53,454 nucleotides of DNA from a virus, in the IMG/VR virus record IMGVR_UViG_3300033552_000011, positions 1-53,454 of that record, one strand, 5' to 3'. The notes beneath the pieces were generated by a model. It was not told the origin of the DNA and searched no databases. It saw only the letters and a list, made by a program, of their open reading frames with translations. A program made the position numbers and the translations under genes. Below, in pieces: positions 14,911 to 37,350 of the stretch. Every line of letters starts with the position of its first letter. Positions within the stretch are counted from its first letter, which is position 1.

Positions 14911-16443
14911 TTAAATTAGGAACGGAACTGGCTCTTCTCCAAACTGATCATTGTCGTCTGGGGCAACATACTCATTGACCTGTTCAAACGCTGTTTCGTT
15001 GTACTCCGCCAGACGTTTCAGCAGGCGGATGACAATGATCGTGGCCATGACCGCATCATCGGTTGCTCCGGCTTTCGCCTCATACGTTTGGCCCTTGGCG
15101 ACGAAGTTCTTGAGTTCTTCCAGCAGAACAGATGAATTGACGTTCAGACCGTTTGACACTTTCTCAATCAAGCCCTTGAGCTGCAGACATGCGAGGATCT
15201 TCTTCTTGCCAGATGTAAACACACCAAGCTTCTGCGTACTAGGTTCATCGTTATACAGCTCTGCAAACTCAGGCTGTTTCTCATCGTTCATGTACAGGGC
15301 AGCTACAGCTTCACCGATACCGTTACGTTCGAATGTCCAGATAACATCTGCTCGACCCTTGCCGACAGGTGTGCTGAGAAGGTTCAGAATCCATTTGAGC
15401 TTTGCATAGAGCAGCGGGATATTAATCTCGTTGCTTCGCCACTCTGCGACCTGATTGAGAGATGGGAATTCAAACACCTCGATGACAGAGAAGTCTTTAC
15501 CAGTGCCTGTCGCAGGATCGAGACCGACAAGGTATGTTTTGTTTTGACCACCGATCTCTGAATCAGGAACCCAGAACTTGAAGCCCATGTCCTCGTACAG
15601 GTGAGGACGAGACCGCATGTTGACCAGCTTCATACTGTTCATCAGCAACGCATCGGAGGAAACAAATATGCAATCCAATTCGGCTGCCGCTTTGACTGTG
15701 CCCAGTTTGCCAACCATCTCATCGTAATACTTCTGGCCACGGTCAGGGTGTTCGTGCCAGTATGCGGCCACTGGATAGAAACCATTCGTGCCTGCGTTCG
15801 CGCCACGCCAGAGTTCAGCGAACAAGTCCGTGTCTCCGTTCGGTGTAGAGGTTACAATGAATTGACCACCAGTCGACAGGGATGGAGCGAGCGATGCCCA
15901 CATTTCTTCCTGGATGCGAGGCGAGGCGAAAGCCAATTCGTCCAGCATAACGCCAGCAGGTGAGCTACCACGGCCTGTACGTTCTGATGTTGCTTCCGAA
16001 GAAATCTTCGAGCCGTTGTCGAACTCGAGCATGGTACGGGAATTGAACTTCGCACCAGCCTTGAGCCAGTGTGGTAGTTCATCGTACGCAGTCTTGATGC
16101 GGTCCATGATCTGTACCGCGTGATTCATGTTCTTGGATGCGATGATCAGTTCTTTGTTTGGCTGAAAGTTTGCGATCCACAGGAAGTACATTGCCACTAT
16201 GGTAGTCTTACCAAGCTGTCGGCTGCAGAGCATGACGACGTCTTTGTGGTTCATGAGCGCGTCAAGCATACGCTCCTGGTAACCGTACAGTTCCAGCGGT
16301 ACCAGACCTTTTGTCGGGTGCTTTACCTTGATGTACTTCGTGAAAAAGAATTCAGGATCTTTCATGCAGCGACCAAGGTCTATAATATCTTCTGGCCGGT
16401 ACTCACTATTTTCATGAGCGCGTTTTGATTTTGGGTTTTTCAT
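14911..16443 (-). CDS. 17: Terminase large subunit gp17 (ATPase-nuclease)
   Basis: The DNA-packaging motor and headful nuclease that docks on the portal. In the 510-residue product the N-terminal ATPase has Walker A 'SRQLGKT' at residues 74-80, Walker B 'VMLDE' with Asp168-Glu169, and the coupling motif 'TSTPNG' at 198-203. The C-terminal RNase H-like nuclease shows Asp309 ('GLDPATG'), Glu372 ('FERNG') and Asp462-463 ('ATDDAVM'). All key residues are present and the length is close to other T4-like terminases. The start overlaps the stop of the degenerate paralogue upstream (16440-16443), so both are probably made together. Confidence 0.93.
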   Translation of the reverse strand: MKNPKSKRAHENSEYRPEDIIDLGRCMKDPEFFFTKYIKVKHPTKGLVPLELYGYQERMLDALMNHKDVVMLCSRQLGKTTIVAMYFLWIANFQPNKELIIASKNMNHAVQIMDRIKTAYDELPHWLKAGAKFNSRTMLEFDNGSKISSEATSERTGRGSSPAGVMLDELAFASPRIQEEMWASLAPSLSTGGQFIVTSTPNGDTDLFAELWRGANAGTNGFYPVAAYWHEHPDRGQKYYDEMVGKLGTVKAAAELDCIFVSSDALLMNSMKLVNMRSRPHLYEDMGFKFWVPDSEIGGQNKTYLVGLDPATGTGKDFSVIEVFEFPSLNQVAEWRSNEINIPLLYAKLKWILNLLSTPVGKGRADVIWTFERNGIGEAVAALYMNDEKQPEFAELYNDEPSTQKLGVFTSGKKKILACLQLKGLIEKVSNGLNVNSSVLLEELKNFVAKGQTYEAKAGATDDAVMATIIVIRLLKRLAEYNETAFEQVNEYVAPDDNDQFGEEPVPFLI

Positions 16444-17225
16444 ATGAATTCACACATATAGTTTTGACGCCATGCTTGCATGCCTATCATGGTCATCGTT
16501 CTTTGCTTCCACATATCGGTAAACGACAGGTCATCAATCGTCCGTTTGAAAGATGTAAAAGTGGAGAAGGGTTTAAAGGAGTCTGTCCAAGCAGCTGCAA
16601 ACGAGTTGTTCCTACCATTAGGCGTGGAGGCAATTAGAACTTTGCCGCCTTGAACTATCGTTGGACAGATGTCGTTATAGATTGCACGCTGAATAGCATC
16701 AGGTGCAAACGCGAAAGAATCGAGGTAGACGCGATCGACAGTGCGCCCGCGCATAGAATTTACGTTAAGTGTTTCAACCATAATTGCGGAGCCGTTGTCA
16801 AACTCCATGTACGACTTACGATTGCTCCGAATACTCGGGCGGAGATATGTTGGCACGTGGGTAATCATGTGAGTCAAGATGTCGTACATCTCTTTTGCAA
16901 ACGTCGCGCTGATACCAAAAGCAATTGCCTTGTGACGCGGTTTGAAGATTACTTCCCACAGAATGAATGCAAGCGACATCGTGGTCATGCCAGTGCCGCG
17001 TGGCATCATGGCAACCATGTTCTGTGATCGCTTAACTGTCGTAATAAATTCGCAGTGATAAGTGTCGAGCCGAAGTTGCCGAGCACCTGATGGCGTACGC
17101 AGCATGAGATATTTCCTCATGAAATACAGCGGGTCACCGGCGCACTTGATTAACTCTTCGCCCTGTTCTCGTGAAAGCCTAGACTGACCTCCTAAGCGTC
17201 CACGCTTGGAAATAATCTTCGTCAA
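16440..17225 (-). CDS. Degenerate terminase ATPase paralogue without nuclease domain
   Basis: A 261-residue protein that aligns with the ATPase half of gp17: 'YHCEF...NMVAMMPRGTGMTT', 'SYMEFDNGSAIMVET', 'RVYLDSFAFAPD', 'IASTPNGRNNSF'. The Walker A lysine is Met80 (RGTGMTT instead of RQLGKT) and the Walker B catalytic Glu is Ser170 (LDS instead of LDE). It ends where gp17's nuclease domain would begin ('YMCEFI', matching 'ELDCIF'). The reading frame is intact and overlaps gp17 and the hydrolase gene by ATGA-type junctions, so it is not a decaying fragment. It probably binds gp17 or procapsid as a non-hydrolysing subunit or regulator; that role is inference. Confidence 0.82.
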   Translation of the reverse strand: MTKIISKRGRLGGQSRLSREQGEELIKCAGDPLYFMRKYLMLRTPSGARQLRLDTYHCEFITTVKRSQNMVAMMPRGTGMTTMSLAFILWEVIFKPRHKAIAFGISATFAKEMYDILTHMITHVPTYLRPSIRSNRKSYMEFDNGSAIMVETLNVNSMRGRTVDRVYLDSFAFAPDAIQRAIYNDICPTIVQGGKVLIASTPNGRNNSFAAAWTDSFKPFSTFTSFKRTIDDLSFTDMWKQRTMTMIGMQAWRQNYMCEFI

Positions 17226-17806
17226 CTGGTTTCTCCAAACACGAAGTTCTGAATAGTCCGGACGGTTGCATTACTCAGCAAAACTTCGAAGTGAGTTGCA
17301 TTAATTTCTACTCGTTCGCCAAAGCCGAGACCTTGCTGGCTGGAGATCGTTACCACACCGTCGTTGGGTGCAGGTGACGTATGTAGGTGACCGCCAGTAG
17401 AAACTATTGTGAGGGTTGGGATATCTAATTTCAATTCTCTGCAACGCATGATGTGCGGAGCGCGTGGCACAATGTCGTTGAACACACGTGAACTACCCGG
17501 AAGCCAGCGCAGGGTTTCTGCCGCGCGCGAGCCTTTGAACGGAGTAGAGATCAGTACCAGTCGCTCAACGAGCTGTGGCATATCAGCAGCCACTAGGGTG
17601 GCAATGACGCCACCCAGTGAATGCGCAACCAGCGTTAGCGAATGACCACGTGGAAGCTTTGAAACTACTTCAGCAATAGATGCCTGAAGGTTTTGGTGGC
17701 TTCGGTAATCAATGCAGTGCGCCTGATGTTTTGGCAGCTGGGAGATGATGTAACTGAACGACGTGGAACTTGAATTGAGTCCATGAATGTAAGCAATGTG
17801 TTTCAT
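17222..17806 (-). CDS. Alpha/beta hydrolase (lipase/esterase-like)
   Basis: A compact 194-residue alpha/beta hydrolase. The oxyanion region is 'IHGLNSSS' at 8-14, the nucleophile elbow 'AHSLGG' places Ser63, the acid is probably Asp149 ('PNDGVV') and the base His172 ('NATHFEV'). The complete triad predicts an active serine hydrolase. It has no signal peptide. It lies upstream of the terminase genes and is ATGA-coupled to the degenerate terminase, so it is expressed with packaging genes; roles in lysis or in modifying host lipids are possible. The family is unusual among T4-type morphogenesis genes. Confidence 0.78.
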   Translation of the reverse strand: MKHIAYIHGLNSSSTSFSYIISQLPKHQAHCIDYRSHQNLQASIAEVVSKLPRGHSLTLVAHSLGGVIATLVAADMPQLVERLVLISTPFKGSRAAETLRWLPGSSRVFNDIVPRAPHIMRCRELKLDIPTLTIVSTGGHLHTSPAPNDGVVTISSQQGLGFGERVEINATHFEVLLSNATVRTIQNFVFGETS

Positions 17807-18920: not shown

Positions 18921-19658
18921 TTACGAACGGTACCAACCTTCAGCTTTCTTTTTCAGATCAGCTTCATTGAAGATTTCAGGGATCAGGTAACCGCCCTTTG
19001 CAGCAGTCAGTTTTTCAAGCGTGCGAATTCCAACAGGGTTGTCTACCGCCTCGTTGTAGAATCCAGACACCTGCTTGAAGATTTTTTGAATCGCATCATT
19101 GTCCAGCTCACCGTCGTTGTTTGAAACCTCGCGGAAGAAATCAAACTTGCCCTTGAAATACTCCTTGTTCACTTCTGATTCAGCGTAAACTTTCTTGATA
19201 AAGTCCTCGTCAACGTGGCGATCAATTGCTGCGCCGCGTGCTTTGGCTCGCTCAATTGCAACGTCTAGGTTGACATTGATAAACACCATGCCCACATCGT
19301 AGCCAACTGATTCCAAGAGACCGGCACGAGCCAGAATGTTCGACGCATCGTTTGAGGTACCGTCTACAAACAGCGGCAACATCGAGTTCAAATAGTTGAA
19401 CAGCGAAGTGCTCGTGATAGGCCGGGTGCGATCACGGAAGAACGACTTCCATGTTTCATTGTTAGAAGGCATCTTGTATTTCTTCGACAAGAACTCTGTT
19501 GCGATGTCGGTGTTTACAACCTTTGGTGAAATCGTGCCATGCAGCTTAGAAACTGTGTAGGACTTACCTGCACCAGGAATCCCTACAACGAAGAGTGCCT
19601 TGAGGATACCCTTGTCGTTAATTGATTCGTTCATCATGAATTCTTTGAATGTGATCAT
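18921..19658 (-). CDS. Zeta-toxin-like P-loop kinase with capsid-targeting-like leader
   Basis: A 245-residue P-loop kinase: 'FVVGIPGAGKSYTV' (P-loop at 26-33), 'VVNTDIATEF' after the second strand, 'LPLFVDGTSND' and a basic lid segment 'AIERAKARGAAIDRH'. This layout matches zeta-toxin/polynucleotide-kinase-type ATPases. The N-terminus 'MITFKEFMMNES' matches the leader of the paralogous family next to it and offers a protease-like site (M-x-N-E|S, less canonical). The start overlaps the upstream gene's stop by one base. If the leader acts as in T4 internal proteins, the kinase would be packaged and injected. Substrate unknown. Confidence 0.75.
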   Translation of the reverse strand: MITFKEFMMNESINDKGILKALFVVGIPGAGKSYTVSKLHGTISPKVVNTDIATEFLSKKYKMPSNNETWKSFFRDRTRPITSTSLFNYLNSMLPLFVDGTSNDASNILARAGLLESVGYDVGMVFINVNLDVAIERAKARGAAIDRHVDEDFIKKVYAESEVNKEYFKGKFDFFREVSNNDGELDNDAIQKIFKQVSGFYNEAVDNPVGIRTLEKLTAAKGGYLIPEIFNEADLKKKAEGWYRS

Positions 19659-20536
19659 TACTTTGCTTTCAACTTTTTAACTTCGGCCTTGAACTCGTCA
19701 TAGTAACGAGCTGGCACAGAAAGGTATTTACCGGAGAACCAGCACTCACGTGTCTCTCCAGGCAAATCTAAATCTTTGGATGTGATCAGCTTCGCACGCC
19801 AATCTTCTGGCGTAAGCTTCTCAGGAATTTCTGTAGCTGCGATCTGTACCAACTGCGACAGCCAGGAATCGTCGTTAGCTTCCTCAGCGAACTTGTCAGC
19901 CACCTCGTCATTGCCATTGGCTTCTGAATTGAATCGACCCCTGCCATTACTGAATACCTTCTTGATCAGCTTCAGCTTGTCAAGAATGCCCATGTGGTCA
20001 GGGAACTCTTTGTAAAGCTCAGTGCCAACAAAGATTCGGAATGCATCGTCGATCAATCCAAAAATGCCATCGATTCGAACACCATCAAAGTTGTCTGTTA
20101 CTGTGCTACGCTTGAGCACGTTCATTTGATTTAGGTCGTAGTCATCCAGCATCGCAATCTTTACCCCGTCGAACGGGAAGATCATGAGAAGGTTTGATTT
20201 GTCATCGCTCACGGTGCCGACTGCGGATTCAGCATTAGTTGAGCAGAAAATCGATTGCCGACGAGCCGGCCAACCTTTCCAGGCCGGCTGAGAGAAAACG
20301 AATTCTTGTTCTTCAGCGCTGCCACCTCGGGACGTGGATTCGCGAGTGCGGGGTACACGGGTGCGGAGTGGATGATGTTTTTCATCCCAGGCACTGCCAC
20401 TTAGCCGGCACAACGGGTTATTGATATCAGGGAATTGCGAGCAATGGTTCAGAAATTCCTTGGCAGCGGCTTCTACTGAATCGTGCTGTTGGTCTTCTTC
20501 CTCAGCTTCGTTGAGGAACTGTTTGAATGTAATCAC
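19658..20536 (-). CDS. Leader-bearing ART-like family, member A (divergent)
   Basis: 292 residues. The leader 'MITFKQFLNEAEEED' offers a cut site FLNE|A. The body keeps family landmarks: a Cys near 'NHCSQF', 'RRQSIFCST' (like RSxSI in relatives), 'LMIFPFDGVKIAML', an Asp-Leu pair, and a C-terminal 'RECWFSGKYLSV'. The usual Arg-Gly of the first motif reads Arg-Leu-Ser-Gly, and the region around it is Arg-rich, so catalytic activity is doubtful. It is ATGA-coupled to the next paralogue upstream (20533-20536). Confidence 0.72.
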   Translation of the reverse strand: MITFKQFLNEAEEEDQQHDSVEAAAKEFLNHCSQFPDINNPLCRLSGSAWDEKHHPLRTRVPRTRESTSRGGSAEEQEFVFSQPAWKGWPARRQSIFCSTNAESAVGTVSDDKSNLLMIFPFDGVKIAMLDDYDLNQMNVLKRSTVTDNFDGVRIDGIFGLIDDAFRIFVGTELYKEFPDHMGILDKLKLIKKVFSNGRGRFNSEANGNDEVADKFAEEANDDSWLSQLVQIAATEIPEKLTPEDWRAKLITSKDLDLPGETRECWFSGKYLSVPARYYDEFKAEVKKLKAK

Positions 20537-21276
20537 AAGGTGCCTTCCGTTTTTAGGCGAGTATAAAAGTTACGACGGATTGCGACACACTTGCCGCCGA
20601 TCCATAGTTCACGCTTTGTGTCAGAATAGTTGTCGATGGTTTTTGTTGTGGCTAACTCAAGCTTCAATCCTTCAGGACTGTAAGCCTTTTCCAGAGCTGC
20701 TTCAACGTTGTCCGGTGTACCGAATATTTGGATCAAACTCTCAACAATGCTTCCGCCCGAATCATCTGACATTTTCTCTTTGATAGCGTCGACGAACTCA
20801 AGGTAAGAAGACTGTGGCAAATCAAAGCTGCGCCAGATTCCGTTCCAATTGTGAATGCGATGGTCATCTTCTGAATCACCGATTTGAAAACTTGGTGTTG
20901 ACCAAAGATCATAAGCTGCGCAGACACCGATCTTTACACCGTCGTAAGGAAACACCGCATATACAGCACCGAATGCATCAGCGGTGTCTAGGTCATTTGC
21001 CAGGATGATTGACTTGCTCCGCTTCGGATATCCGAGTGACGGAAGGAAATTATCCATGATGTTGGTGTAAAAATTCGATGTGTTGGCAGACTCACGTGTT
21101 GATGCTTCACCATTCAAAAGGAAAGAATCTGAACCTGGGTTCATACCACGCCATAATGGTTCCTTCAGCTTGAGCGCGTCCCCGCAATGCTCTTTGATTA
21201 GAGCAACAGCTTCGGCAACTTCAAGTGCTGTTTTATGCGCACCCGCTTCATTCAGCAGGTATTGTTTAAATCTCAC
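20533..21276 (-). CDS. Leader-bearing ART-like family, member B
   Basis: 247 residues. Leader 'MRFKQYLLNEAGAHK' with possible cut LLNE|A. Family motifs: 'LWRGMN' (Arg43-Gly44), 'RESANTSNFYT', 'PKRSKSIILAN' (about 84-93), 'AFGAVYAVFPYDGVKIGVC', and 'RELWIGGKCVAI' with Glu223. The set Arg-Gly, a Ser-bearing strand followed by helix and Phe/Tyr-Gly, and a late Glu resembles the R-S-E layout of ADP-ribosyltransferases. It sits directly after the small-terminase gene, coupled by ATGA at both ends. Confidence 0.75.
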   Translation of the reverse strand: MRFKQYLLNEAGAHKTALEVAEAVALIKEHCGDALKLKEPLWRGMNPGSDSFLLNGEASTRESANTSNFYTNIMDNFLPSLGYPKRSKSIILANDLDTADAFGAVYAVFPYDGVKIGVCAAYDLWSTPSFQIGDSEDDHRIHNWNGIWRSFDLPQSSYLEFVDAIKEKMSDDSGGSIVESLIQIFGTPDNVEAALEKAYSPEGLKLELATTKTIDNYSDTKRELWIGGKCVAIRRNFYTRLKTEGTL

Positions 21277-21743
21277 TTGATTTCCTTTACTTCGGCATCA
21301 ATCGAAATCATACGCATGATCTCTTCTCGCGATGCAACCACGACGTTGTTCTGATTACGTCCTCCGCTGAATGGAACGAAAGCTGCTTGGCGCTTACGGT
21401 CGCCCTTGACCTTGGCACGGGTTGCAACTGCGTTCAGCGCTATGGTTAGATAGGATGCAGCAACCTCAGCATTACGAGCTGCGTAACGAGGCTCGATGAT
21501 CTGTGTGTACTCGGTCTGCTGTTGGAAGGTTTCGAGTGCAGCGTCATAGATGGCGTCGATGCGCTCATCAATAACTTTGTCATCCTCGTCCTGCTCTTCA
21601 CCCTCAGGTGGTGCAACCATCTCGGCCAGTTCACCTTCGGTTACCTGATCGTACTCTTCCAATTCCTGGCCATCCTCTTCGCGCTCGGTATTGAACAGCT
21701 CGTCAAGCGGGTTCAGAATTGGGTTTTCAGATTTCTGTTTCAT
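21273..21743 (-). CDS. 16: Terminase small subunit gp16
   Basis: gp16 regulates the gp17 motor and recognises packaging DNA. This 156-residue protein has an acidic N-terminal half ('LDELFNTEREEDGQELEEYD') and a helical central core 'YAARNAEVAASYLTIALNAV', followed by basic and polar sequence, a pattern I associate with gp16 of T4-like phages. The call also rests on synteny: it lies in the gp4-to-gp17 interval where gp16 is expected. Unusually, gp16 and gp17 are 5 kb apart, separated by inserted effector-like genes. It overlaps both neighbours by ATGA. Confidence 0.68.
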   Translation of the reverse strand: MKQKSENPILNPLDELFNTEREEDGQELEEYDQVTEGELAEMVAPPEGEEQDEDDKVIDERIDAIYDAALETFQQQTEYTQIIEPRYAARNAEVAASYLTIALNAVATRAKVKGDRKRQAAFVPFSGGRNQNNVVVASREEIMRMISIDAEVKEIK

Positions 21744-22450
21744 TTTCGTACTCCCTTTGCGTTCCGCATTACAGAGCGGTACAGCATCATGTCAACAGCA
21801 ATACATTTGCCGCCGATCCATAGTTCGTGTTCTTTGCCATCATTGTAAATCCCAGATGTGGCGGTAGTAGCAAGCTTAAACTGCTCTGCGTAAGCCTTTG
21901 CTATCGTTTCCTTGATCGTCTTAGGATCGAGGTCTAAGATGTCACGCCTACCTAACAATGCCTTGAAGTCGCTTATTAACTTTGGAAATGACTTGTCGGT
22001 AATATCGTTATCGTTGTAGAAGTTGTTCCAGCGGTTAATGGTTCTTGCCATCGACCTCGGATGATTACTCAGCGAGATTTCAGTCTCAAAAATATCTCGA
22101 CCAGGACAAACACCAATCGTTACTCCGTCATATGGAACGATCGCATATGGTTCACCGTACCCGGCAGCATACTTTCTATTCTTCCAGTTCGCGGCGATGA
22201 TTGATGCGCTTCGCTTCGGGAACTCCTTAGGCAATACCGCATCCAGGATGACCGTGTAATGGTTAGATGTATTTGCTGACTGCCGTTTGCCAGCTGCACC
22301 GTGAATCAAGCCATAGCCATTTTCAAATGGATTCATGCCACGAACGATTGGCAGTTGGCCGATCGCATCTTTACAATGCTTATTCAGTAGCTTCCAGACT
22401 TCCTCTTCAGCGAGATCGGTCTTGTACTGTTTGATTTCGCTGAGTATCAT
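21740..22450 (-). CDS. Leader-bearing ART-like family, member C
   Basis: 236 residues. I choose the ATG at 22450 because it forms an ATGA overlap with the upstream paralogue, as in the rest of the operon; an ATG five codons earlier also exists. The leader is altered ('MILSEIKQYKTDLAEEE') but still offers L-A-E|E. Motifs: 'IVRGMNPF', 'RQSANTSNHYTVILD', 'FPKRSASIIAANW', 'YGEPYAIVPYDGVTIGVC', and 'HELWIGGKCIAVD'. It is closest to member D. Confidence 0.74.
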   Translation of the reverse strand: MILSEIKQYKTDLAEEEVWKLLNKHCKDAIGQLPIVRGMNPFENGYGLIHGAAGKRQSANTSNHYTVILDAVLPKEFPKRSASIIAANWKNRKYAAGYGEPYAIVPYDGVTIGVCPGRDIFETEISLSNHPRSMARTINRWNNFYNDNDITDKSFPKLISDFKALLGRRDILDLDPKTIKETIAKAYAEQFKLATTATSGIYNDGKEHELWIGGKCIAVDMMLYRSVMRNAKGVRK

Positions 22451-23208
22451 TCTGGAGAGTACCATCGAGATTGACCCAACATATTAGGATCAGGGTTCTC
22501 CATCATGTCTTTATAGACATTCATATTTATGACCACGCACTTGCCACCAATCCAAACCTCGCGACGCTTCTTGTCGTTGTAGACTTTGGATTCATCAGTG
22601 GTAGCCAGCTTAAACGGTTTCGTATAAGCTTTAATGAACTCCTGCTTAATGGTGCCTGGGTCAAGATCCGCAAGCCAATCAGAAATTCCGCTTTCTTTTG
22701 CCCGAAGTTTTTCAAGACGTTCCATCATTTCTTCAAAACTTAGTTTGTCATTGGCGACCGAATTACGCAGGTTGTAATTCCAATCCTCAATACTTTCATT
22801 GTATCCATTAACCTCAATTCGTGTGTCCCACATATCCGAGTCCGGGCAGACACCGATCTTCACCCCATCAAACGGAATGATCGCGAACAGCCTCCCACCA
22901 TATGCAGCTGCATGACTACGGTTCGCCCAGTTGGCACAGATGATTGACCCACTGCGCTTTGGAAACTCTTTCGGCAGAACAGCATCGAGAATGACGGTGT
23001 AATAATTAGTTGTGTTGCGTGACTTACGCCCGCCAACCTCACCATGTAAAACTCCGAAGCCGCCATCGAACCCCTTCATACCACGGACGATTGGTGTTTC
23101 CAAATCCTTCAGTGCGTCTTTGCAATGCTTGTTGAGAAGTTCCCAGGCACCTTGGGCGTCTGTCTCAGTTTTATACTGGTCTTCTGCCAGATAGTCTTTG
23201 AATCTCAT
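22447..23208 (-). CDS. Leader-bearing ART-like family, member D
   Basis: 253 residues. Leader 'MRFKDYLAEDQYKT' with cut site YLAE|D. Motifs: 'IVRGMKGF', 'RKSRNTTNYYTVILD', 'FPKRSGSIICANW', 'YGGRLFAIIPFDGVKIGVC' and 'REVWIGGKCVVIN'. The stretch 'TVILDAVLPKEFPKRS' is identical with member C, pointing to a fairly recent duplication. It is ATGA-coupled to gp4 upstream (23205-23208) and to member C downstream. Confidence 0.75.
   Translation of the reverse strand: MRFKDYLAEDQYKTETDAQGAWELLNKHCKDALKDLETPIVRGMKGFDGGFGVLHGEVGGRKSRNTTNYYTVILDAVLPKEFPKRSGSIICANWANRSHAAAYGGRLFAIIPFDGVKIGVCPDSDMWDTRIEVNGYNESIEDWNYNLRNSVANDKLSFEEMMERLEKLRAKESGISDWLADLDPGTIKQEFIKAYTKPFKLATTDESKVYNDKKRREVWIGGKCVVINMNVYKDMMENPDPNMLGQSRWYSPE
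22524..22531 (-). promoter_or_regulatory. Possible internal late promoter, CATAAATA
   Basis: CATAAATA on the minus strand inside member D, 73 bases upstream of the start of member C. It matches the motif seen upstream of virion genes but is in coding sequence, so it could be chance. Confidence 0.35.
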
Positions 23209-28643: not shown

Positions 28644-29828
28644 TCACTTTAGGTTGAAAGCTTTCATGAAAGCTTTCAAGGCGTTCTGTTCGGTTTCGTT
28701 GTCAAACATAGTTTTTGCTTTTTCAAAAGCATCAGGCACATGTTTATGAATTTTGTTCAGCATTGTCTTGAACTCAGCAATCATTTTTGTAGATATGTTG
28801 GGTTGCTTTTGGTAGATCAATTTACCCATCCAGTACATGGCAGTGTACAATGCCTGTTTGGCGTCTGTCCCATCCTCAACAGCATGTTCCAATCTACCCC
28901 AGACTGCGCCGCCCGCCTGAGAACTGATAAACGTTTGCAAGGTATCTCGTGGGTTGGCACCAACATCATCTTGCTTTTTGGTCTGGCTTGCACCAAACAA
29001 CTTCGCAAGCTTCTTCAGGTATTCTTGCTTCTCAGCTTCCGGATCACATGCCAGTTCCAGGATTGTGAGGAAGCGACCAACGTCGTCGGTAACCTGGTTC
29101 AATTTCTTGTGGTAGTCAGTGTTGCCTGCAGTACGGAATTCCAGGTAGCCAGCATCCAGTTTCATTAGGTTGACGGTACGGTACTTCATTTTCTTGAGAG
29201 CTGATCCGGCCATTGCCTTAAGCATCGATGCACTCTCTGGCTTGCTGGCATATTCTGACAGAGCTGCCATCAGGTCAGCACGGTGTTCCTGGGCATATGT
29301 GTTCAGCTTGCGATCGTAGGACTTTAGCACGTGTGCTTCGCCCATGAACAGGATCAGCTTGAGCGGATCGAGCTTTTCTTTGATGTCAGGGATCGACAGG
29401 TTCAAGTGCAGACCTGTTGTCGAGTTGGTAACCACTTCGTGCTTGACCATCCATTTGAACAACATCTTCAGGTCGCCCAGCGAGTCTTCGACTGGGTCTG
29501 GTGGGGAGATGATTTCAATTCCGCAGCCCAGTCCACCCTCTTGAATCGAACCGTCGGGAACGATTCGCCATTGGTTGATGCTCTCGCCGTTGACTCGCAC
29601 GGAATAGCCCAGCAAATCTTCGAGGGAATCTTTGGCCATCTTTGCTGTGGCCATGAAGTCGCCCTTGCTTGAATCCTGTGTGCTGACAATGAGCAGGTCC
29701 GATTCCTCTGGAACCCACATCTCTAGTTCGAAGCCCATCTTCGCAGAACCAGACATGCGTTCGATTGCTGCGGCGAATACGCCCTTGGACATGCGTGCTT
29801 CGTCCAGAAATTGTTTGAATGTAATCAT
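28644..29828 (-). CDS. Amidoligase-like enzyme with capsid-targeting-like leader
   Basis: 394 residues. Leader 'MITFKQFLDEARMSK' with cut site FLDE|A. The body matches the amidoligase group of ATP-dependent carboxylate-amine ligases (glutamate-cysteine ligase fold): 'MGFELEMWVP' (Glu34, Glu36), 'WRIVPDGSI' (Asp91), 'GIEIISPPDPVE' (Glu104), 'TGLHLNLSI' (His140) and 'YLEFRTAGNTDY' (Glu229-Arg231). All expected metal and substrate landmarks appear intact. Such enzymes form peptide or amide bonds; the substrate is unknown. With the leader, a packaged and injected ligase is the inference. It is ATGA-coupled to the paralogue upstream. Confidence 0.75.
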   Translation of the reverse strand: MITFKQFLDEARMSKGVFAAAIERMSGSAKMGFELEMWVPEESDLLIVSTQDSSKGDFMATAKMAKDSLEDLLGYSVRVNGESINQWRIVPDGSIQEGGLGCGIEIISPPDPVEDSLGDLKMLFKWMVKHEVVTNSTTGLHLNLSIPDIKEKLDPLKLILFMGEAHVLKSYDRKLNTYAQEHRADLMAALSEYASKPESASMLKAMAGSALKKMKYRTVNLMKLDAGYLEFRTAGNTDYHKKLNQVTDDVGRFLTILELACDPEAEKQEYLKKLAKLFGASQTKKQDDVGANPRDTLQTFISSQAGGAVWGRLEHAVEDGTDAKQALYTAMYWMGKLIYQKQPNISTKMIAEFKTMLNKIHKHVPDAFEKAKTMFDNETEQNALKAFMKAFNLK

Positions 29829-30535
29829 AGGTCTACAAAAGCTTTCTTTATGACGCCGAGTTGCAGGTCACGGTTTTCTTTATCGTTGGCCAGCGGAATG
29901 ACGTAGTACTCGTCGCAATCAATCATGATCTCAACTGCCATACCTACAGCCTTGTCGAATCCGTTGATGGTGTAACCGAGACCCTTCATCAGTTCACCGA
30001 TTGCCTCAACATCTGGCTTACCGTCTGAACCAACGAACTCTTTTTGAAGTTCACCAGGTGTACCGTGATCTTTCGTATTTGTCTGCAATTCTTTTCGAAT
30101 CACATCATCATACAGGTCGGCAACTTTTGGTGACCAGACATAGGTGAACTTACCGATTGGCAATATGACTGCGACCTGCCCATACTCATATGCGTTTTCA
30201 CGGCCAGCCTCACCAAAGCAAAACACCGCCTGTGAGCGGGCACGGATGCCCATCTCTTCTTCAAACCAATCATCAATGATTCCATGGATTGCTTTCGCGG
30301 TATCCATTGGCTTGCGTTCTTTGCGAACAGTCTTCTTGAACACATTGAAAGTAACGCCTGGGAATTTCTCACCAAGCGACATGTTGCCAACCAGCGAACC
30401 AGCGCCGTTCATGCCCCGGACTATCAGGCCATTCTGTTGGGATCGTTTGAAGAAGTCAGAACAGTCGCCACGAAGCAATCCCTCGAAGGTCAAGTTTTCT
30501 TTTTCCTCTAGGAACTGCTTAAACGTTTTAGTCAT
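29825..30535 (-). CDS. Leader-bearing ART-like family, member E
   Basis: 236 residues. Leader 'MTKTFKQFLEEKENL' with cut site FLEE|K. It belongs to the second sub-lineage: 'LIVRGMNG' (Arg40), 'KKTVRKERKPMD', 'IRARSQAVFCFGEAG', 'YGQVAVILPIGKFTYVWSP', 'DLYDD' and a late 'EIMIDCDEYYVIP'. The motif order is the same as in members B-D, so the two sub-lineages are homologous. It overlaps its upstream neighbour by 8 bases and the amidoligase-like gene by ATGA. Confidence 0.74.
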   Translation of the reverse strand: MTKTFKQFLEEKENLTFEGLLRGDCSDFFKRSQQNGLIVRGMNGAGSLVGNMSLGEKFPGVTFNVFKKTVRKERKPMDTAKAIHGIIDDWFEEEMGIRARSQAVFCFGEAGRENAYEYGQVAVILPIGKFTYVWSPKVADLYDDVIRKELQTNTKDHGTPGELQKEFVGSDGKPDVEAIGELMKGLGYTINGFDKAVGMAVEIMIDCDEYYVIPLANDKENRDLQLGVIKKAFVDL

Positions 30536-31031
30536 CTGATTTTACTTTGTACATTTCACGACGCAAGTCGCGCGGTGAAGTACCCTTGATTTTCATGGTG
30601 CGCTTCGGCATATCAAAGATATACTCTGGGATCGAACCAACAAAGTGCTTGTCAGTACGCTTGATGGCGTAGGTCTCTGCGCGCGATGCACCATTTTCCA
30701 GGTGACGCATATCAACCAACTCCACGTCTGAAAACATCTGGCGAACCTTCTGAACATTGTCAATCGTGAATTCAATCATTTCAGAATTGCGTTTTTGTTT
30801 CGCCTTATCGAAATCAGTCCACACTTTCAGCTTGATTTTCATTGGCTTACCGTCATACAGTTTGTCAAGCTTGGCTTGCTTCTCTGCCTTCAAACGATCA
30901 CCGGCTGCGTTCAGTACTTTGTCGTTCTCAGCTTTCTTTTCAGCACGCTTCGCATCTTTCTCTGCGCGCGTTACCTGCTTGCCGCCTTTGTTCTCGGCAA
31001 TGTACAGGTCGATTAATTGAATCAGTTTCAT
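30528..31031 (-). CDS. Basic protein with a possible packaged-protein leader
   Basis: 167 residues. The start 'MKLIQLIDLYIAENKGG' offers a clear YIAE|N site. It is followed by a Lys/Glu/Ala-rich helix (about 20-60) and a mixed domain with 'PMKIKLKVWTDFDKAK' and 'MIEFTIDNVQKVRQMF'. The strongly basic character would suit a DNA-associated internal head protein. It is ATGA-coupled to gp15 (31028-31031). No enzyme family is recognised. Confidence 0.68.
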   Translation of the reverse strand: MKLIQLIDLYIAENKGGKQVTRAEKDAKRAEKKAENDKVLNAAGDRLKAEKQAKLDKLYDGKPMKIKLKVWTDFDKAKQKRNSEMIEFTIDNVQKVRQMFSDVELVDMRHLENGASRAETYAIKRTDKHFVGSIPEYIFDMPKRTMKIKGTSPRDLRREMYKVKSDD

Positions 31032-31819
31032 AGGATCTCGTTTGGTTGTGGTGGAATAGGACCCTGTGCAGGGCGTTCAGTAATTTCAACGGTGCCGTAG
31101 GTCGGGTCACCGAAAGGCAGAAGGTTACCGTCATCAGTTACTTCAAGAGTACCCATTGACCCGAGGTCACCAAGTTGAATCACGACCTTGCGTACCAGGT
31201 CATCCTTGATGCCCATTGGAATGCTGAGGTAGATTGGCATGATGAAGCCGAGTGACCAGACGATCATGCGGCGATCTGCACCTGATGGATAGTTTTCTTC
31301 GTTGTTGATGTCGGTCAGGGTAATGTTGGTGATGCGCGTCCAGTCAAACGGTCCATCAGACTTTTGGATCTGAATGTCTGGGTTGAAGAGAACGAGGATC
31401 TGTTCGAGGATCTGGTGAAGCTGTTGGGTGTTTGATGCCCAGATAGCAAGTTCCATAGTCATGTCATATGGAACAGGCATGACGCGCTTGACAACCGTCA
31501 GGTCATCTGGGAAGACACCACCGGTTTTCATTGTAACGATTTGATCGACGAAGCCAATACCACGACGACGTTCATCGTTAGGTACAAGGCCAGTCATGTA
31601 TGCGGACATCGTCGGCAGGGAGAATACACGGTTCGATGTGTTGCCTGACATGATGCCGGCAACAACACGGTCTTTGTTACCAATGACTGTAGGTACACTG
31701 ATGAATTCGGGCTCGCCGCATTCACCGATGCCAGTCTGTACTTGCAGGCCGTGGAAGATCGAGACGAACTGGAGCAGGTATGCCCTGAGTTGTCCGTGGT
31801 AAAAAAAGTGGTTTATGAT
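31028..31819 (-). CDS. 15: Tail completion and sheath stabiliser gp15, with non-AUG (ATC) start
   Basis: gp15 caps the tail tube and sheath and joins the tail to the neck. The region 'PYDMTMELAIWASNTQQLHQ' followed by 'ILEQILVLFNPDIQI' and 'RRMIVWSLGFIMP' matches T4 gp15. The first ATG (31651) would remove the conserved N-terminus. Reading on upstream, the frame stays open and encodes 'INHFFYHGQLRAYLLQFVSI', the expected gp15 opening. GGAG (31828-31831) lies 8 bases before an ATC codon (31817-31819); no ATG, GTG or TTG is in place. The protein would be 263 residues, close to T4's 272. The start is therefore AUC, or one base differs from a true ATG. Confidence 0.82.
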   Translation of the reverse strand: MINHFFYHGQLRAYLLQFVSIFHGLQVQTGIGECGEPEFISVPTVIGNKDRVVAGIMSGNTSNRVFSLPTMSAYMTGLVPNDERRRGIGFVDQIVTMKTGGVFPDDLTVVKRVMPVPYDMTMELAIWASNTQQLHQILEQILVLFNPDIQIQKSDGPFDWTRITNITLTDINNEENYPSGADRRMIVWSLGFIMPIYLSIPMGIKDDLVRKVVIQLGDLGSMGTLEVTDDGNLLPFGDPTYGTVEITERPAQGPIPPQPNEIL

Positions 31820-31836
31820 GGTAAAAGCTCCGTGTG

Positions 31837-32466
31837 TTATTTGAATCCTAGAGATTTTTTAAGCTCTTCCTCGTATTCAATCGGGAAAGCATAGTATTTA
31901 TCGCACTTGATCATGATCTCACATTCATTGCGAACGGCAGAATCCAGACCAGTCTTTCGGTATTCTTGTTTATTCAGCCACTCGATAATGTCGGCTGGCT
32001 CACCTTCGTCTAGCTCTTCACCTTGGAGGTCAACATACAAATCGCTGATGTTAACCGACCACACATATTGAAATTCACCAATCGGGAAAATAATATGAGG
32101 ATCGCCGTATTCTTCGATGATCTCTGAAGAAGAATTTTCACCAAAGGCAAAGAGGCCTTCGGTACGCGCTTTGAACCCAAACTTATCATCGAACCAAGCG
32201 TTAAGTGTGCGATGGGTTTCGCTCGACATATCGCGTGGTTCACGATCAGAACGTACAGTTTTCCTGATGTACACCAGCTTGTTGCCTTCAGAATCTGTTA
32301 CATGCAGATCACCGGAAAGATGACTGTGTTTAATACCACGGAACAGGAAACCATTGCGGTCGGAGTCCCTAATGAACTGGCCGCAATCGCGTTCGATCAT
32401 CGTGCGAACTTCGTTGTCATACGACTTTGGATCGGCTTCGTTCAGGAATTGTTTGAATGTTTTCAC
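31837..32466 (-). CDS. Leader-bearing ART-like family, member F
   Basis: 209 residues. Leader 'MKTFKQFLNEADPKS' with cut site FLNE|A, very close to the T4 internal-protein leader. Second sub-lineage motifs: 'FLFRGIKHS', 'RKTVRSDREPRDM', 'FKARTEGLFAFGEN', 'YGDPHIIFPIGEFQYVWS', 'DLYVD' and 'ECEIMIKCDKYYAFP'. It is ATGA-coupled to member G upstream and ends 17 bases before the gp15 start. Confidence 0.75.
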   Translation of the reverse strand: MKTFKQFLNEADPKSYDNEVRTMIERDCGQFIRDSDRNGFLFRGIKHSHLSGDLHVTDSEGNKLVYIRKTVRSDREPRDMSSETHRTLNAWFDDKFGFKARTEGLFAFGENSSSEIIEEYGDPHIIFPIGEFQYVWSVNISDLYVDLQGEELDEGEPADIIEWLNKQEYRKTGLDSAVRNECEIMIKCDKYYAFPIEYEEELKKSLGFK

Positions 32467-33104
32467 GGGGTCATATCCAGTGCTAGTTTGATGGCATGCT
32501 CGCCGGCAAGTTCAAATGCGTAGTAACGATCGCATTGGACCATAACTTCATTTTTCATGTTCACGGCTTTGTGTAGGTGAGAGTCGATGTACTTGGCGGA
32601 GTTTAGAAACTCAATGAGCTTTTCTTCATCTCCATCTTTTAACTTGTTAATATCTTGGCCAATCTCGTTGTAAAGATCCTTGACAATCGGGGACCAAACG
32701 TAATTGAATTCACCAATTGGAAAGACTGCGCATGGTACACCGTACTGACGCAGGAGATTTTTGCCGGTCTCACCCAGGCAGAACATTGTCTGCGAGCGAG
32801 CACCGAAGCCGAATTTCTTTTTGAACCAGTTGTCCATGATCTGGTGTTGCTGCCGTTGGCTGTCTTTCGGCTTGCGATCTTGCCGAACAGTCTTCTCCCA
32901 GTAAATGAGGTCGTGTTCACGAGGTGAATCTACGCCGGCTCTAATTGACAGAGCTGTATCAATAGGAATTCCGCCTTCGGAAACACCTCGATACAGGAGA
33001 CCATGTTGTTTCGACTCTTGCAGGAAAGGTTTGCAGTCGCGCTCGACCAGTTCCCTGAACGTGATGGCTTCTTCTTCGGTGATAAATTGTTTGAATGTAA
33101 TCAT
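32463..33104 (-). CDS. Leader-bearing ART-like family, member G
   Basis: 213 residues. Leader 'MITFKQFITEEEAIT' with cut site FITE|E. Motifs: 'LLYRGVSEG', 'EKTVRQDRKPKDSQ', 'FGARSQTMFCLGETG', 'YGVPCAVFPIGEFNYVWSP', 'DLYNE', 'KNEVMVQCDRYYAFE'. Closest to members F and H, forming a three-gene tandem between gp14 and gp15. It overlaps member H by one base and F by four. Confidence 0.75.
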   Translation of the reverse strand: MITFKQFITEEEAITFRELVERDCKPFLQESKQHGLLYRGVSEGGIPIDTALSIRAGVDSPREHDLIYWEKTVRQDRKPKDSQRQQHQIMDNWFKKKFGFGARSQTMFCLGETGKNLLRQYGVPCAVFPIGEFNYVWSPIVKDLYNEIGQDINKLKDGDEEKLIEFLNSAKYIDSHLHKAVNMKNEVMVQCDRYYAFELAGEHAIKLALDMTP

Positions 33105-33724
33105 TATGTTTTGCCAGTCGTTAGTGACTCTCGTAGCAGCGTTGCGTATTCCATAGGGAACGCATAGTAGCTGCTACATTGGACCATGATCTCATTACGA
33201 CCACGACATGCGTGCTGCAAATCCGTTGTTTGGTAACCAGCGCCTCCCAACCATTTGGTAATCTTTTCTTCCTCGTATTCATCCATGACGTTATACATGT
33301 CCTCAACATGTTCTGACCAAACGTATTTGATATCACCAATTGGGAAGATAATGCAGGGTGTTCCATAATGAGAAAGTTCATTACGATGAAGTCCAGCACC
33401 GGCTGCGAACACACAATTTGTGCGGGCACGGATGCCGAACTTTTCATTGAACCAATCATCAACAATGGTAGTGCGCTTCCTGGACATGTCCTTCGGTTTA
33501 CGATCGGTGCGAACAGCCTTCTTGATGAAGTCCATGTTGGTACCATCGTAAGCCTCGGTCGATCCAGGAATACCAGTATCAATCTTGACACCACGATACA
33601 GGAATCCACCCTTGGCTTCTTTTAAGAACGGGCCGCAATGCTTCTCGAGAAGAATCTTCACCTCTGCAGGTGGTTCTTCTCCAAGAAATTTGTCCTCACC
33701 TAGATATTGCTTAAATGTTATCAT
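33104..33724 (-). CDS. Leader-bearing ART-like family, member H
   Basis: 206 residues. The start at 33724 gives the leader 'MITFKQYLGEDKFLGEE' with two possible cut sites (YLGE|D and FLGE|E) and an ATGA overlap with gp14; a longer frame would lie inside gp14. Motifs: 'FLYRGVKID', 'KKAVRTDRKPKDM', 'IRARTNCVFAAGAG', 'YGTPCIIFPIGDIKYVWSE', 'DMYN' and 'RNEIMVQCSSYYAFP'. Confidence 0.75.
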   Translation of the reverse strand: MITFKQYLGEDKFLGEEPPAEVKILLEKHCGPFLKEAKGGFLYRGVKIDTGIPGSTEAYDGTNMDFIKKAVRTDRKPKDMSRKRTTIVDDWFNEKFGIRARTNCVFAAGAGLHRNELSHYGTPCIIFPIGDIKYVWSEHVEDMYNVMDEYEEEKITKWLGGAGYQTTDLQHACRGRNEIMVQCSSYYAFPMEYATLLRESLTTGKT

Positions 33725-35655
33725 GGAACCTTCTTGCTGGATGGATTCATTGTCGTATCCATATTCAGAATTTGAAGCTGACTTGGACGGTGCGCAGAAC
33801 GCTGGGCACGGCGATCGGTCTCGACATAAATCCAATCGTTCTTGACGATTGAGAATTTGTACAGGCGAGCTGGCAGGTTGAGCTGAGGCGCGTACTCGAG
33901 GCGGTAGTATTCTCCGTCTTTAGCTTTTGCAGCATCAGGTAACTTGTCGAAGCCAGTCGTGTATGGTGCTCCATCTGGCGGCAAGCCATCCTCGACATAC
34001 AGGCCAACACCGTCGTACGAACCTGGTTGGCGGAAGCGATTGGTACCAGAGGCTTGTTCGCGAACGTTCGTTCCCTTTTCTGGAACAGCGCGAACTGCTT
34101 CGGCTTCGTTTGCCTCGGATGCTGTGAGTCCCATCGTTTCGATTTGTTCAACACCTTCAAAGAATCGGAAGTCGTCAGTGATGTATTTCTGTGTGTCGGC
34201 AGTGCCGAGCAAATCGCGGTGCTCTTGACCTGGAATAAGTTGTTGAGCCTGGAAACGGTAGATGATCGGCTTCCAACCAGAGGTGAAACCATCTGCTGCC
34301 CAACCGCCGTCAGTTACTTCCAGGAACTTACGCACTGGACGGAGGTGTTGATCCCACTGCATTTCAGATGGGACTTCAAGGATGTCTCCAATTACGATTG
34401 GCCGACCAAGTGCTCGCACCATGTCAGCGAAGGATACAGTGAACGAATAGATGTCAGCCATCTGGAAACCGAACTTTGACAGGTCAGACACAGCGTCAAA
34501 TGGGGTGTACTGTGCTTTGAGCTGGATAGATGATTTCGCGTAGTCGCGATCACGGTTCTCCATGAAGAGCGGGTCTTGGATATCGTCAAGCGTTGTTGCC
34601 TGGTAATCGAATAGCTCGAGCTTGTCTACAACCCATGGCGAACCATTGCTGGCACCAGCGAATGATGTAGGTACAATCCTCCAGTAACGGGATGCAGCTG
34701 ACTGCTTGATACGAATCAACGCACCTATTGCTGCATTCGGCAGGTTGACAACGTCAACACGCTTCCATTCCATCTCGACAGGAACCATGAACGAATCGCC
34801 AGATTGGAACGGCACAGCACCTGGGTTGATTGTGAACGAGCCTTCTGGCGAATTGAATTGAGCGCCGACAGTTGCTTCACCAAGGATCGATGTGCCTTCG
34901 TTCGACGTGTACATGACCGTAAACTTCATCGGCGAATCAGCAAACAGCATGAATGATCCTGGCCGGGAACCAAAGCCTGGGCGGAATCCACCCACGGCGC
35001 CGTCGCCGCCCTGAGCATTGGACGTTGTGATCTTGAACTGGTTGACTGTAAAGTTTCCGTCGGAGCGGTCAACACGAACCTGCATCGCACGAGTAGTCGC
35101 ATCCGGTCCTTGCTGGATACGGAAACTTGTGATGTGTTGGGAGTCAGGTGCACCAGGTGCGTTCTCAGGTTCGCCGAAAGAAGTCTTGCGAATACCAAAA
35201 TCATAACCAATATACGCGGGTCCTTGCAGAACGTCTAGGCCAGTGGTTGAGCTGACCCAACTGTCGGCCAGCTCGTCAAACACATTGGCAACATCTCCGC
35301 TCGACCCGATTGCGTGGCCAGCACCAACGAGGTCAATCAGCTTGCCCTGCTCGTGGTTACCCAGGAGCTTGAACACATTGACTGGCGCGCCAGAGATGTT
35401 CAGTGCTTCAGCAGCAACTGCATCCTGGTAAGTGTTCTCAGTGTATGCACAAACGTCTTGCGAAAGCCTGTACGTACCAACGCAGAATTCCGGAGGCACG
35501 TAGGTTCCACCGCCACCAGGCGGTATGACTGCGCCAGGGCCAAGTGGTGGGGCATAAGGCAGGCCCGAGTTAGGGGTCACCGGATTGTTGAAGGAGCCTG
35601 CAGCATCCAGGCATTCTTCAAGTGTAGTTCGTTTTGGTGGTAGTGGTGTAGTCAT
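33721..35655 (-). CDS. 14: Neck protein gp14-like, enlarged
   Basis: A 644-residue virion protein placed where T4 gp14 lies (between gp13 and gp15). The region about 405-500 ('LKAQYTPFDAVSDLSKFGF', 'IYSFTVSFADMVRALGRPIV', 'GDILEVPSEM', 'KPIIYRFQAQQL') resembles the core of gp14 neck proteins. T4 gp14 is only 256 residues, so about 350 residues are extra, including a Pro/Gly-rich start and a beta module ('FTVMYTSNEGTSILGEATVG') like those in the sheath. The assignment rests on synteny plus this core. It is translated immediately after member I. Confidence 0.65.
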   Translation of the reverse strand: MTTPLPPKRTTLEECLDAAGSFNNPVTPNSGLPYAPPLGPGAVIPPGGGGTYVPPEFCVGTYRLSQDVCAYTENTYQDAVAAEALNISGAPVNVFKLLGNHEQGKLIDLVGAGHAIGSSGDVANVFDELADSWVSSTTGLDVLQGPAYIGYDFGIRKTSFGEPENAPGAPDSQHITSFRIQQGPDATTRAMQVRVDRSDGNFTVNQFKITTSNAQGGDGAVGGFRPGFGSRPGSFMLFADSPMKFTVMYTSNEGTSILGEATVGAQFNSPEGSFTINPGAVPFQSGDSFMVPVEMEWKRVDVVNLPNAAIGALIRIKQSAASRYWRIVPTSFAGASNGSPWVVDKLELFDYQATTLDDIQDPLFMENRDRDYAKSSIQLKAQYTPFDAVSDLSKFGFQMADIYSFTVSFADMVRALGRPIVIGDILEVPSEMQWDQHLRPVRKFLEVTDGGWAADGFTSGWKPIIYRFQAQQLIPGQEHRDLLGTADTQKYITDDFRFFEGVEQIETMGLTASEANEAEAVRAVPEKGTNVREQASGTNRFRQPGSYDGVGLYVEDGLPPDGAPYTTGFDKLPDAAKAKDGEYYRLEYAPQLNLPARLYKFSIVKNDWIYVETDRRAQRSAHRPSQLQILNMDTTMNPSSKKVP

Positions 35656-36492: not shown

Positions 36493-37350
36493 TTAATCGT
36501 CCGCGCCTTTGCGGTTCCATTGTGCTGTGAGTTGTTTTGACAACTCCTCGTTTTTATCTTTCAACCATTCAGTCAAAAGCACTTTGTCTTCTTCGCTTAT
36601 TTGATTCCTGTCAAGTGAAATGAATCCGCATTCACCTTCGATCCAAACCTCAACGCTACCACTCGAATCGATGTTCGCACCGGTAGTCAGGCCGAAAATC
36701 TCTGGTTTGACGAGACCATTCCAAACATCCCACATGTCGTCCCAATTTCTCTTGTCCATCTCTTTGAGCAAGTGCTCAAGTTGGTCCTCATAGAACGTAG
36801 CGAGATTAACCTTGTCGTCATACCATTTACGCATCAGCCTCTTTGAAACGTGCTGCAAGGCATTCTGAAGTTCAAAATACTTTTCGCTGCGGCCCATATC
36901 GAACCTGTGCAAGAGCGTTTCGGTAAGCTCATTTAAACCTAAGAGATCTATATCTGGCAAAACCTTCTTGACCCAGATATCACCAACCAAAACGTCTGCG
37001 ACCTTATCGTTGTCCTTGATGAACATCAGGTGAGGGTAACCAAAGTCGCCAGCTTTCCCCGCACTGGTTGAAGCAATGAATGACGACGAACGCTTCGGGA
37101 AGCCTTTGAATCGCGGATGACCATCAATCCACAGAGTGTAGTTGTTGGGGATACCACCAACACTCTTACGAGGCTTTGTACCAACTGAATTTCCAATTGT
37201 GATACCAGCATCGCCACTCGTGAATCCGCGATAGACATGTTGATTGCCCGCAATATACTTCGAGCAATTTGAGTTTGCCCACTTGATAAAATCTTCGGCC
37301 GATACTGCTTTGCCTCGTCCCTCGGAGAGAAACTGCTTGAATGTCTTCAT
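36493..37350 (-). CDS. Leader-bearing ART-like family, member J
   Basis: 285 residues. I choose the ATG at 37350, which overlaps the stop of the homing endonuclease as ATGA; another ATG lies two codons upstream. Leader 'MKTFKQFLSEGRGKA' with cut site FLSE|G. Motifs: 'HVYRGFTSGD', 'PRKSVGGIPNNYTLWID', 'FPKRSSSFIAST', 'FGYPHLMFIKDND', 'GDIWVKK' and 'VEVWIEGECGFIS'. Closest to member I; the pair probably arose by local duplication. Confidence 0.74.
   Translation of the reverse strand: MKTFKQFLSEGRGKAVSAEDFIKWANSNCSKYIAGNQHVYRGFTSGDAGITIGNSVGTKPRKSVGGIPNNYTLWIDGHPRFKGFPKRSSSFIASTSAGKAGDFGYPHLMFIKDNDKVADVLVGDIWVKKVLPDIDLLGLNELTETLLHRFDMGRSEKYFELQNALQHVSKRLMRKWYDDKVNLATFYEDQLEHLLKEMDKRNWDDMWDVWNGLVKPEIFGLTTGANIDSSGSVEVWIEGECGFISLDRNQISEEDKVLLTEWLKDKNEELSKQLTAQWNRKGADD

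What the first reader, a model, noticed from the sequence alone, without database searches (positions are those of the whole stretch)
16440..17225. Intact but catalytically dead terminase ATPase paralogue coupled to gp17
The gene aligns with only the ATPase half of gp17, yet Walker A Lys is Met and Walker B Glu is Ser, and the nuclease domain is absent. The frame is open, with ATGA coupling to gp17. A dead subunit made in fixed ratio with the motor could form mixed rings, act as an assembly chaperone or block rival terminases.
Basis: partly seen in the sequence, partly recalled or inferred. Interest (0 to 1): 0.82.

Follow-up and report, generated by a model that had tools for sequence, protein, structure and literature searches.

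The report
Dead paralogue of phage packaging motor
Next to the gene for its DNA-packaging motor this giant phage carries a shortened copy that has lost both residues needed to burn ATP. Related giant phages keep such a copy as a folded protein under selection, so it is probably a working helper or decoy and not junk, but its job is untested.

Summary
Window 16440-17225(-) is an open 261-codon gene (TTG start) homologous to the ATPase half of the adjacent gp17 (29% identity, 2e-30). Walker A Lys is Met, the Walker B catalytic Glu is Ser, there is no nuclease domain, and ATGA overlaps gp17. It is not an oddity of one contig. I found 24 significant homologues plus one putative (RAS14), nearly all directly upstream of terL, in Rak2-like jumbo phages and uncultured relatives. 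A truncated second TerL in Rak2-like phages was noted in 2017, but I found no report of its catalytic state. Every one of these lost both Lys and Glu, yet all keep the P-loop Arg, Gly and Thr/Ser; 39/39 neighbouring TerLs keep Lys and Glu. After catalytic death the gene stays under purifying selection (dN/dS 0.12-0.37), although it diverges fastest in its block. AlphaFold gives a confident gp17-like ATPase fold. The gene is patchy: absent in some close relatives, with a deletion scar in one. Two ATPase-only paralogues (phiM12 gp17.2; L241) keep both residues, so the truncation need not be dead. Most likely it is a pseudo-ATPase partner or regulator of gp17; a mixed ring, or a decoy against TerL-sensing immunity, remains open.

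The parts
16440..17225 (-). TerL ATPase-domain paralogue (pseudo-ATPase), 261 aa, TTG start
16986..16988 (-). Met80 in place of the Walker A lysine (PRGTGMTT)
16716..16718 (-). Ser170 in place of the Walker B catalytic glutamate (VYLDS)
16440..16443 (-). ATGA overlap of the paralogue stop with the gp17 start
14911..16443 (-). gp17 (TerL), 510 aa, intact RQLGKTT and LDE motifs and a nuclease domain
17222..17806 (-). alpha/beta hydrolase gene directly upstream; overlaps the paralogue start (TTGA); also directly upstream of terL in relatives that lack the paralogue

Best explanation
The gene encodes a pseudo-ATPase: a duplicated TerL N-terminal domain that keeps the gp17 ATPase fold and the P-loop arginine, but can no longer hydrolyse ATP and has no nuclease. 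It is translated together with gp17 and most likely acts as a non-catalytic partner that binds gp17 (or its portal site) and regulates motor assembly, initiation or activity, in the gene position that TerS (gp16) has in T4. Shown: homology, loss of both catalytic residues in 24 significant homologues plus one putative, predicted fold, gene overlap, purifying selection in the family. Inferred: no ATPase activity in vitro, binding to gp17, regulatory role.
For: Lys 0/24 and Glu 0/24 in the aligned set, but Arg 24/24, Gly 24/24, Thr/Ser 24/24 and Q-motif Gln 23/24 (the window has His there); TerL Lys and Glu 39/39 (RAS14 Glu column read by eye); one more dead homologue in L034. Conservative Walker B D/E swaps already kill T4 gp17 (PMC3012670), so the Glu-to-Asp members count as dead too. 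dN/dS 0.12 for L024/L025 and 0.16-0.28 among XbC2/L079/L080/L081 with unsaturated dS. AlphaFold pLDDT 91.8 with best PDB hit the T4 gp17 ATPase domain, TM 0.87; the GAP32-type paralogue also folds as TerL ATPase. Position directly upstream of terL, often overlapping, in most carriers. No T4-type TerS (PF11053) detected above noise in the jumbo-type and window-type records searched, window included, while X1 and S-PM2 have one and lack the paralogue.
Against: Patchy: several TerS-less relatives also lack it (XacN1, PA5oct, Munch, L016), so it is not an obligate TerS substitute. TerS is too divergent for non-detection to be proof. phiM12 has gp16 plus its own gp17.2. In Phosso and Atu_ph07 the dead copy lies away from terL. 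No interaction data; no complex could be modelled here.
Confidence: 0.45

Rival explanations
1. Decoy: an ATPase-domain look-alike that occupies host sensors of TerL (Avs-type STAND proteins) or another TerL-binding host factor, so only its surface matters and not its catalysis.
For: Fastest-evolving gene in a conserved block: GAP32 vs CBB 57% identity while the flanking genes are 93-97%. Presence/absence among close relatives and a deletion scar. Avs1-4 recognise TerL, portal or another phage protein (PMC12931631), and Avs3-bound TerL (8dgc) is among the fold hits of both models.
Against: Conserved coupling to terL in most lineages; a decoy need not keep the P-loop Arg/Gly/Thr pattern; no known Avs partner for these phages. 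Avs3 structural details were not checked here.
Confidence: 0.2
2. Natural mixed motor: the dead subunit is built into the gp17 pentamer as a non-translocating subunit in a controlled share.
For: The T4 motor is a pentamer that tolerates one to three inactive subunits (PMC8589836). The paralogue keeps the ATPase fold and the P-loop arginine. The 4-bp overlap would favour a steady ratio.
Against: In T4 inactive subunits slow packaging and increase pausing. The paralogue lacks the whole nuclease half, and some members lack the C-terminal part of the ATPase domain (161-214 aa). Members evolve far faster than gp17.
Confidence: 0.18
3. Relic: a leftover of tandem duplication, tolerated and being lost.
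For: Absent in many relatives (80 loci around XaC1-type TerL have none). L029 keeps only the first 11 codons fused to terL. Truncated members exist (L030, L082, L083, L085).
Against: dN/dS 0.12-0.37 with intact frames across deep divergence. Selective loss of the catalytic positions while neighbouring P-loop residues stay invariant. A confidently folded predicted structure.
Confidence: 0.1
4. Still an ATPase by another lysine or other geometry.
For: HK97 TerL uses an extra P-loop lysine (PMC9410871), so unusual P-loops exist.
Against: No lysine within the window's P-loop and no conserved lysine near it: the only lysine-rich column is residue 195 (13 of 24), by the C-motif. The catalytic Glu is lost as well.
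Confidence: 0.04

Closest known systems
Truncated second large terminase of Rak2-like phages (CBB_274, GAP32_268, BF gp272; phrog_5989)
   Same: Same position directly upstream of terL, ATPase half only, same family profile (phrog_5989, 1.9e-34), both catalytic residues lost
   Different: Published only as a 'truncated form' or 'terminase-like protein' (PMC5259590, PMC7760394); I found no published note of the dead active site or of selection. The window gene is only about 18-22% identical to them
Sinorhizobium phage phiM12 gp17.2
   Same: ATPase-half paralogue between gp16 and gp17, start/stop overlap with gp17
   Different: Keeps Walker A Lys and Walker B Asp-Glu, and phiM12 has a TerS
T4 gp17 ATPase domain (2o0j, 2o0h, 3cpe)
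   Same: Fold (TM 0.87) and motif order, including the P-loop arginine (R162 in T4)
   Different: Lys and Glu missing, no nuclease domain
T4 gp16 small terminase
   Same: Upstream neighbour of gp17; proposed regulatory role
   Different: No sequence or fold similarity: gp16 is a coiled-coil oligomer, this is a P-loop fold

Membership tests
TerL (T4 gp17 type) as an active motor | Terminase_6N ATPase fold | tested here: met
   Pfam 1.2e-9; AlphaFold plus Foldseek TM 0.87 to gp17
TerL (T4 gp17 type) as an active motor | Walker A lysine | tested here: not met
   Met80; 0/24 in aligned homologues, 39/39 in TerL
TerL (T4 gp17 type) as an active motor | Walker B catalytic glutamate | tested here: not met
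   Ser170; 0/24 in aligned homologues, 39/39 in TerL (RAS14 read by eye)
TerL (T4 gp17 type) as an active motor | C-terminal RNase H-like nuclease domain | tested here: not met
   ORF ends at CEFI, the domain boundary
Rak2-like truncated terminase (phrog_5989) | Match to the family profile | tested here: met
   phrog_5989, 120 bits, E 1.9e-34, best family
Rak2-like truncated terminase (phrog_5989) | ATPase-only gene directly upstream of terL | tested here: met
Rak2-like truncated terminase (phrog_5989) | Common descent with the Rak2-like copies rather than independent duplication | tested here: inconclusive
   One group favoured in most trees but branches are long; lineage-specific origins not rejected (AU p 0.22 and 0.09)
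Small terminase (T4 gp16, PF11053) | Sequence family | tested here: not met
   No Pfam match of the protein to PF11053; no PF11053 in the window
Small terminase (T4 gp16, PF11053) | Stimulates TerL ATPase, binds DNA, forms rings | not testable with these tools
   needs protein

The most novel reading that the evidence does not exclude
Some jumbo phages build a hetero-oligomeric packaging motor, or a dedicated pseudo-ATPase regulator in place of TerS, from a dead TerL ATPase paralogue; ATPase-only tandem copies arose more than once and most then lost exactly the two catalytic residues.
Probability: 0.3. Interest if true: 0.85.

Novelty: new variant of a known kind. Interest (0 to 1): 0.62.

Why it matters
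Packaging motors are treated as homomeric rings, and how far they need all subunits active is debated using artificial dead mutants. A family of naturally dead TerL domains, encoded in overlap with the motor gene and kept by selection, makes that question testable in living phages. It may also explain how jumbo phages without a recognisable TerS control packaging, or reveal a counter-measure to TerL-sensing immunity.

Tried and rejected
Close relatives of the window paralogue by pattern scan of viral contigs: none. Profile scan with the full paralogue alignment: no stretch conserved enough. RAS14 TerL scan: no relatives. XacN1 ORF256 as a paralogue: no similarity. Atu_ph07 gp110/gp109 as paralogue plus TerL: rejected, this is one TerL interrupted at Walker A by an intein-like insertion. 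The split ATPase and nuclease ORFs of L031 and L032 (and, by layout, L065-L071) were rejected as paralogues: in L031 and L032 the halves carry intein-like ends. First tally 'all ATPase-only copies are dead' was corrected after phiM12 gp17.2 and L241 were found with intact residues. Published 'inactive/second terminase' searches found nothing on function.

Full report
WHAT IS THERE. The ORF at 16440-17225(-) is real and as described: 261 codons, TTG start with a GGAG upstream, no stop, 4-base overlaps on both sides (TTGA with the stop of the abhydrolase gene before it, ATGA with gp17 after it). It matches the ATPase half of the neighbouring gp17 at 29% identity (2e-30), Pfam Terminase_6N at 1.2e-9 and T4 gp17 in the PDB at 1e-18. 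Walker A is PRGTGMTT where gp17 has SRQLGKTT; Walker B is VYLDS where gp17 has VMLDE. It ends at YMCEFI, the boundary between ATPase and nuclease domain.

RELATIVES. The record is a 53-kb IMG/VR contig. Its gp17 is nearest to jumbo-phage TerLs (XacN1, Phosso, PA5oct, Rak2-like phages). An ATPase-only second TerL lies directly upstream of terL in GAP32, CBB, XbC2, BF and XaC1, in all 11 IMG/VR loci found with the GAP32 TerL, some of which are GAP32, CBB and BF again, and in the window's own clade: L017, L023, L024, L025, L027, L028, L030, L042, L047, with a more distant one in L034. Phosso and Atu_ph07 have one away from terL; Phosso's is annotated 'terminase small subunit'. The 161-aa RAS14 gene upstream of terL looks like a further, eroded member by position and by eye (R..GVST), but no profile supports it.

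CATALYTIC STATE. In an alignment of 24 copies (RAS14 included, L034 not) and 39 TerLs: P-loop Lys 0/24 against 39/39; catalytic Glu 0/24 (RAS14 by eye) against 39/39; P-loop Arg 24/24, Gly 24/24, Thr/Ser 24/24. The Lys position holds eight different residues (Leu, Ile, Thr, Met, Val, Ser, Phe, Ala). L034 makes 25 (RQVGLS). A scan of every TerL-invariant column in the ATPase domain picks out only four positions never kept by the copies: the Walker Lys, the Walker B Glu, an acidic residue in the AYE(E)LP segment and an N-terminal Lys where few rows align. No conserved lysine takes over. In T4 even Asp/Glu swaps in Walker B abolish activity (PMC3012670). The retained arginine is T4 R162, proposed as a cis arginine finger (PMC9410871).

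TWO EXCEPTIONS. phiM12 gp17.2, between gp16 and gp17, keeps RATGKTT and IDE. L241, a Phosso-like contig, has an ATPase-only ORF (863-1765) with RQSGKT and CDE just before terL; it is 40-42% identical to TerLs of its own clade against 25-31% to the dead copies, so it looks like a separate, younger duplication, although a tree that puts it with the dead copies is not rejected (p-AU 0.28). ATPase-only copies therefore keep both catalytic residues (2) or lack both (25); none was found with only one.

SELECTION. NG86 dN/dS: L024/L025 0.12 (TerL 0.08); L023 against L024 and L025 0.31-0.37 (TerL 0.12); XbC2, L079, L080 and L081 pairs 0.16-0.28 (TerL 0.03-0.07) at similar, unsaturated dS. GAP32 against CBB: paralogue 57% identical, flanking genes 93-97%. 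The protein is under constraint after losing its catalytic residues, but it is the least conserved gene in its block. These pairs are relatives; the window's own copy has no close enough homologue for such a test.

LOSS. In the window's clade the gene is absent between the abhydrolase gene and terL in L016, L018, L026 and L029. L029 terL begins with MKIISKRGREL fused in frame to VKNPQLKRAY; at DNA level the first part matches the paralogue start of L028 and the window, which I read as a deletion scar. None of 80 loci around XaC1-like TerLs has a copy.

STRUCTURE. AlphaFold2 on an alignment of window and viral-contig sequences: pLDDT 91.8, pTM 0.88; best PDB match the T4 gp17 ATPase domain, TM 0.87, rmsd 2.1. 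The GAP32-type copy: pLDDT 86.4, same best match, TM 0.68.

ORIGIN. Trees group the dead copies (99/100 under LG+F+R5; 95 under PMSF with the catalytic columns removed), but branches are long; with more rows the node falls to 94/90 and includes phiM12 gp17.2, and in one row set it is not resolved. Holding window-type copies with window-type TerLs is not rejected (p-AU 0.22), nor GAP32-type with theirs (0.09). One old duplication with many losses, or several duplications, both fit.

MECHANISM. A folded, selected, non-catalytic TerL domain made with gp17 fits a partner or regulator of gp17 best (0.45). It lies where T4 has gp16, and no PF11053 match above noise was found in the window or in the jumbo-type and window-type records searched (one E 0.016 hit in L016's contig lies inside a 1655-aa frame); but TerS is hard to detect, and several of these records also lack the paralogue, so 'TerS substitute' goes too far. 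A mixed ring is possible because the T4 pentamer tolerates one to three dead subunits, at a cost (PMC8589836). A decoy fits the fast divergence and patchiness: Avs1-4 sense TerL, portal or another phage protein (PMC12931631) and Avs3-bound TerL is among the fold hits. Sequence cannot separate these.

KNOWN OR NEW. Buttimer et al. 2017 reported CBB_274 as a truncated large terminase, shared by Rak2-like phages and present in phiM12 and phiN3 (PMC5259590); a 2020 Erwinia phage paper repeats it (PMC7760394). I found no mention in the held library of the dead active site, its family-wide consistency, the selection pattern or a function. The window gene is a new, distant member; the pseudo-ATPase character is the new part.

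Noticed in passing
L031, L032/L033, L034, L065-L071 (terL region): TerL split at the ATPase/nuclease boundary by intein-like ends, on separate ORFs (for example ...RQEVG/C...HN/CEFLSS in L031; L065-L071 judged by layout only). The insertion site is the same CEF motif at which the dead paralogues end, which may bear on how they arose.
   Followed up: partly
L004:4980-7171 (Atu_ph07), L248:1241-2941 (contig of L034), L241:1762-4335: TerL interrupted inside Walker A (GK/S or GK/T) by intein-like sequence; in Atu_ph07 it is spread over two ORFs annotated as two terminases.
   Followed up: partly
L076:44933-47151 (phiM12): phiM12 gp17 itself has an altered P-loop (RQSAKTT) while the short gp17.2 has a normal one (RATGKTT): a possible division of labour in the opposite sense.
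   Followed up: no
L029:3968-4001: In-frame fusion of the paralogue's first codons to terL, a likely deletion scar.
   Followed up: yes
window 20536-23208, 29828-33835, 36496-37356: At least seven copies of two unknown families (phrog_12810, phrog_11975) interspersed among structural genes; one more at 19661-20536 is weaker.
   Followed up: no
window 18924-19658 and 17222-17806: Zeta-toxin/AAA_33-like kinase and an alpha/beta hydrolase in the same gene cluster as terL; the hydrolase sits just before terL in several relatives.
   Followed up: no
L026:1121-3067: Four consecutive ORFs made of repeated units of the type AKSAEYSYLYAxxVLxGRFPLGEP.
   Followed up: no
L038:2306-3151 (Phosso XYS97501.1): Dead TerL ATPase paralogue annotated in the public record as 'terminase small subunit'; it lies near the major capsid gene, away from terL.
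   Followed up: partly
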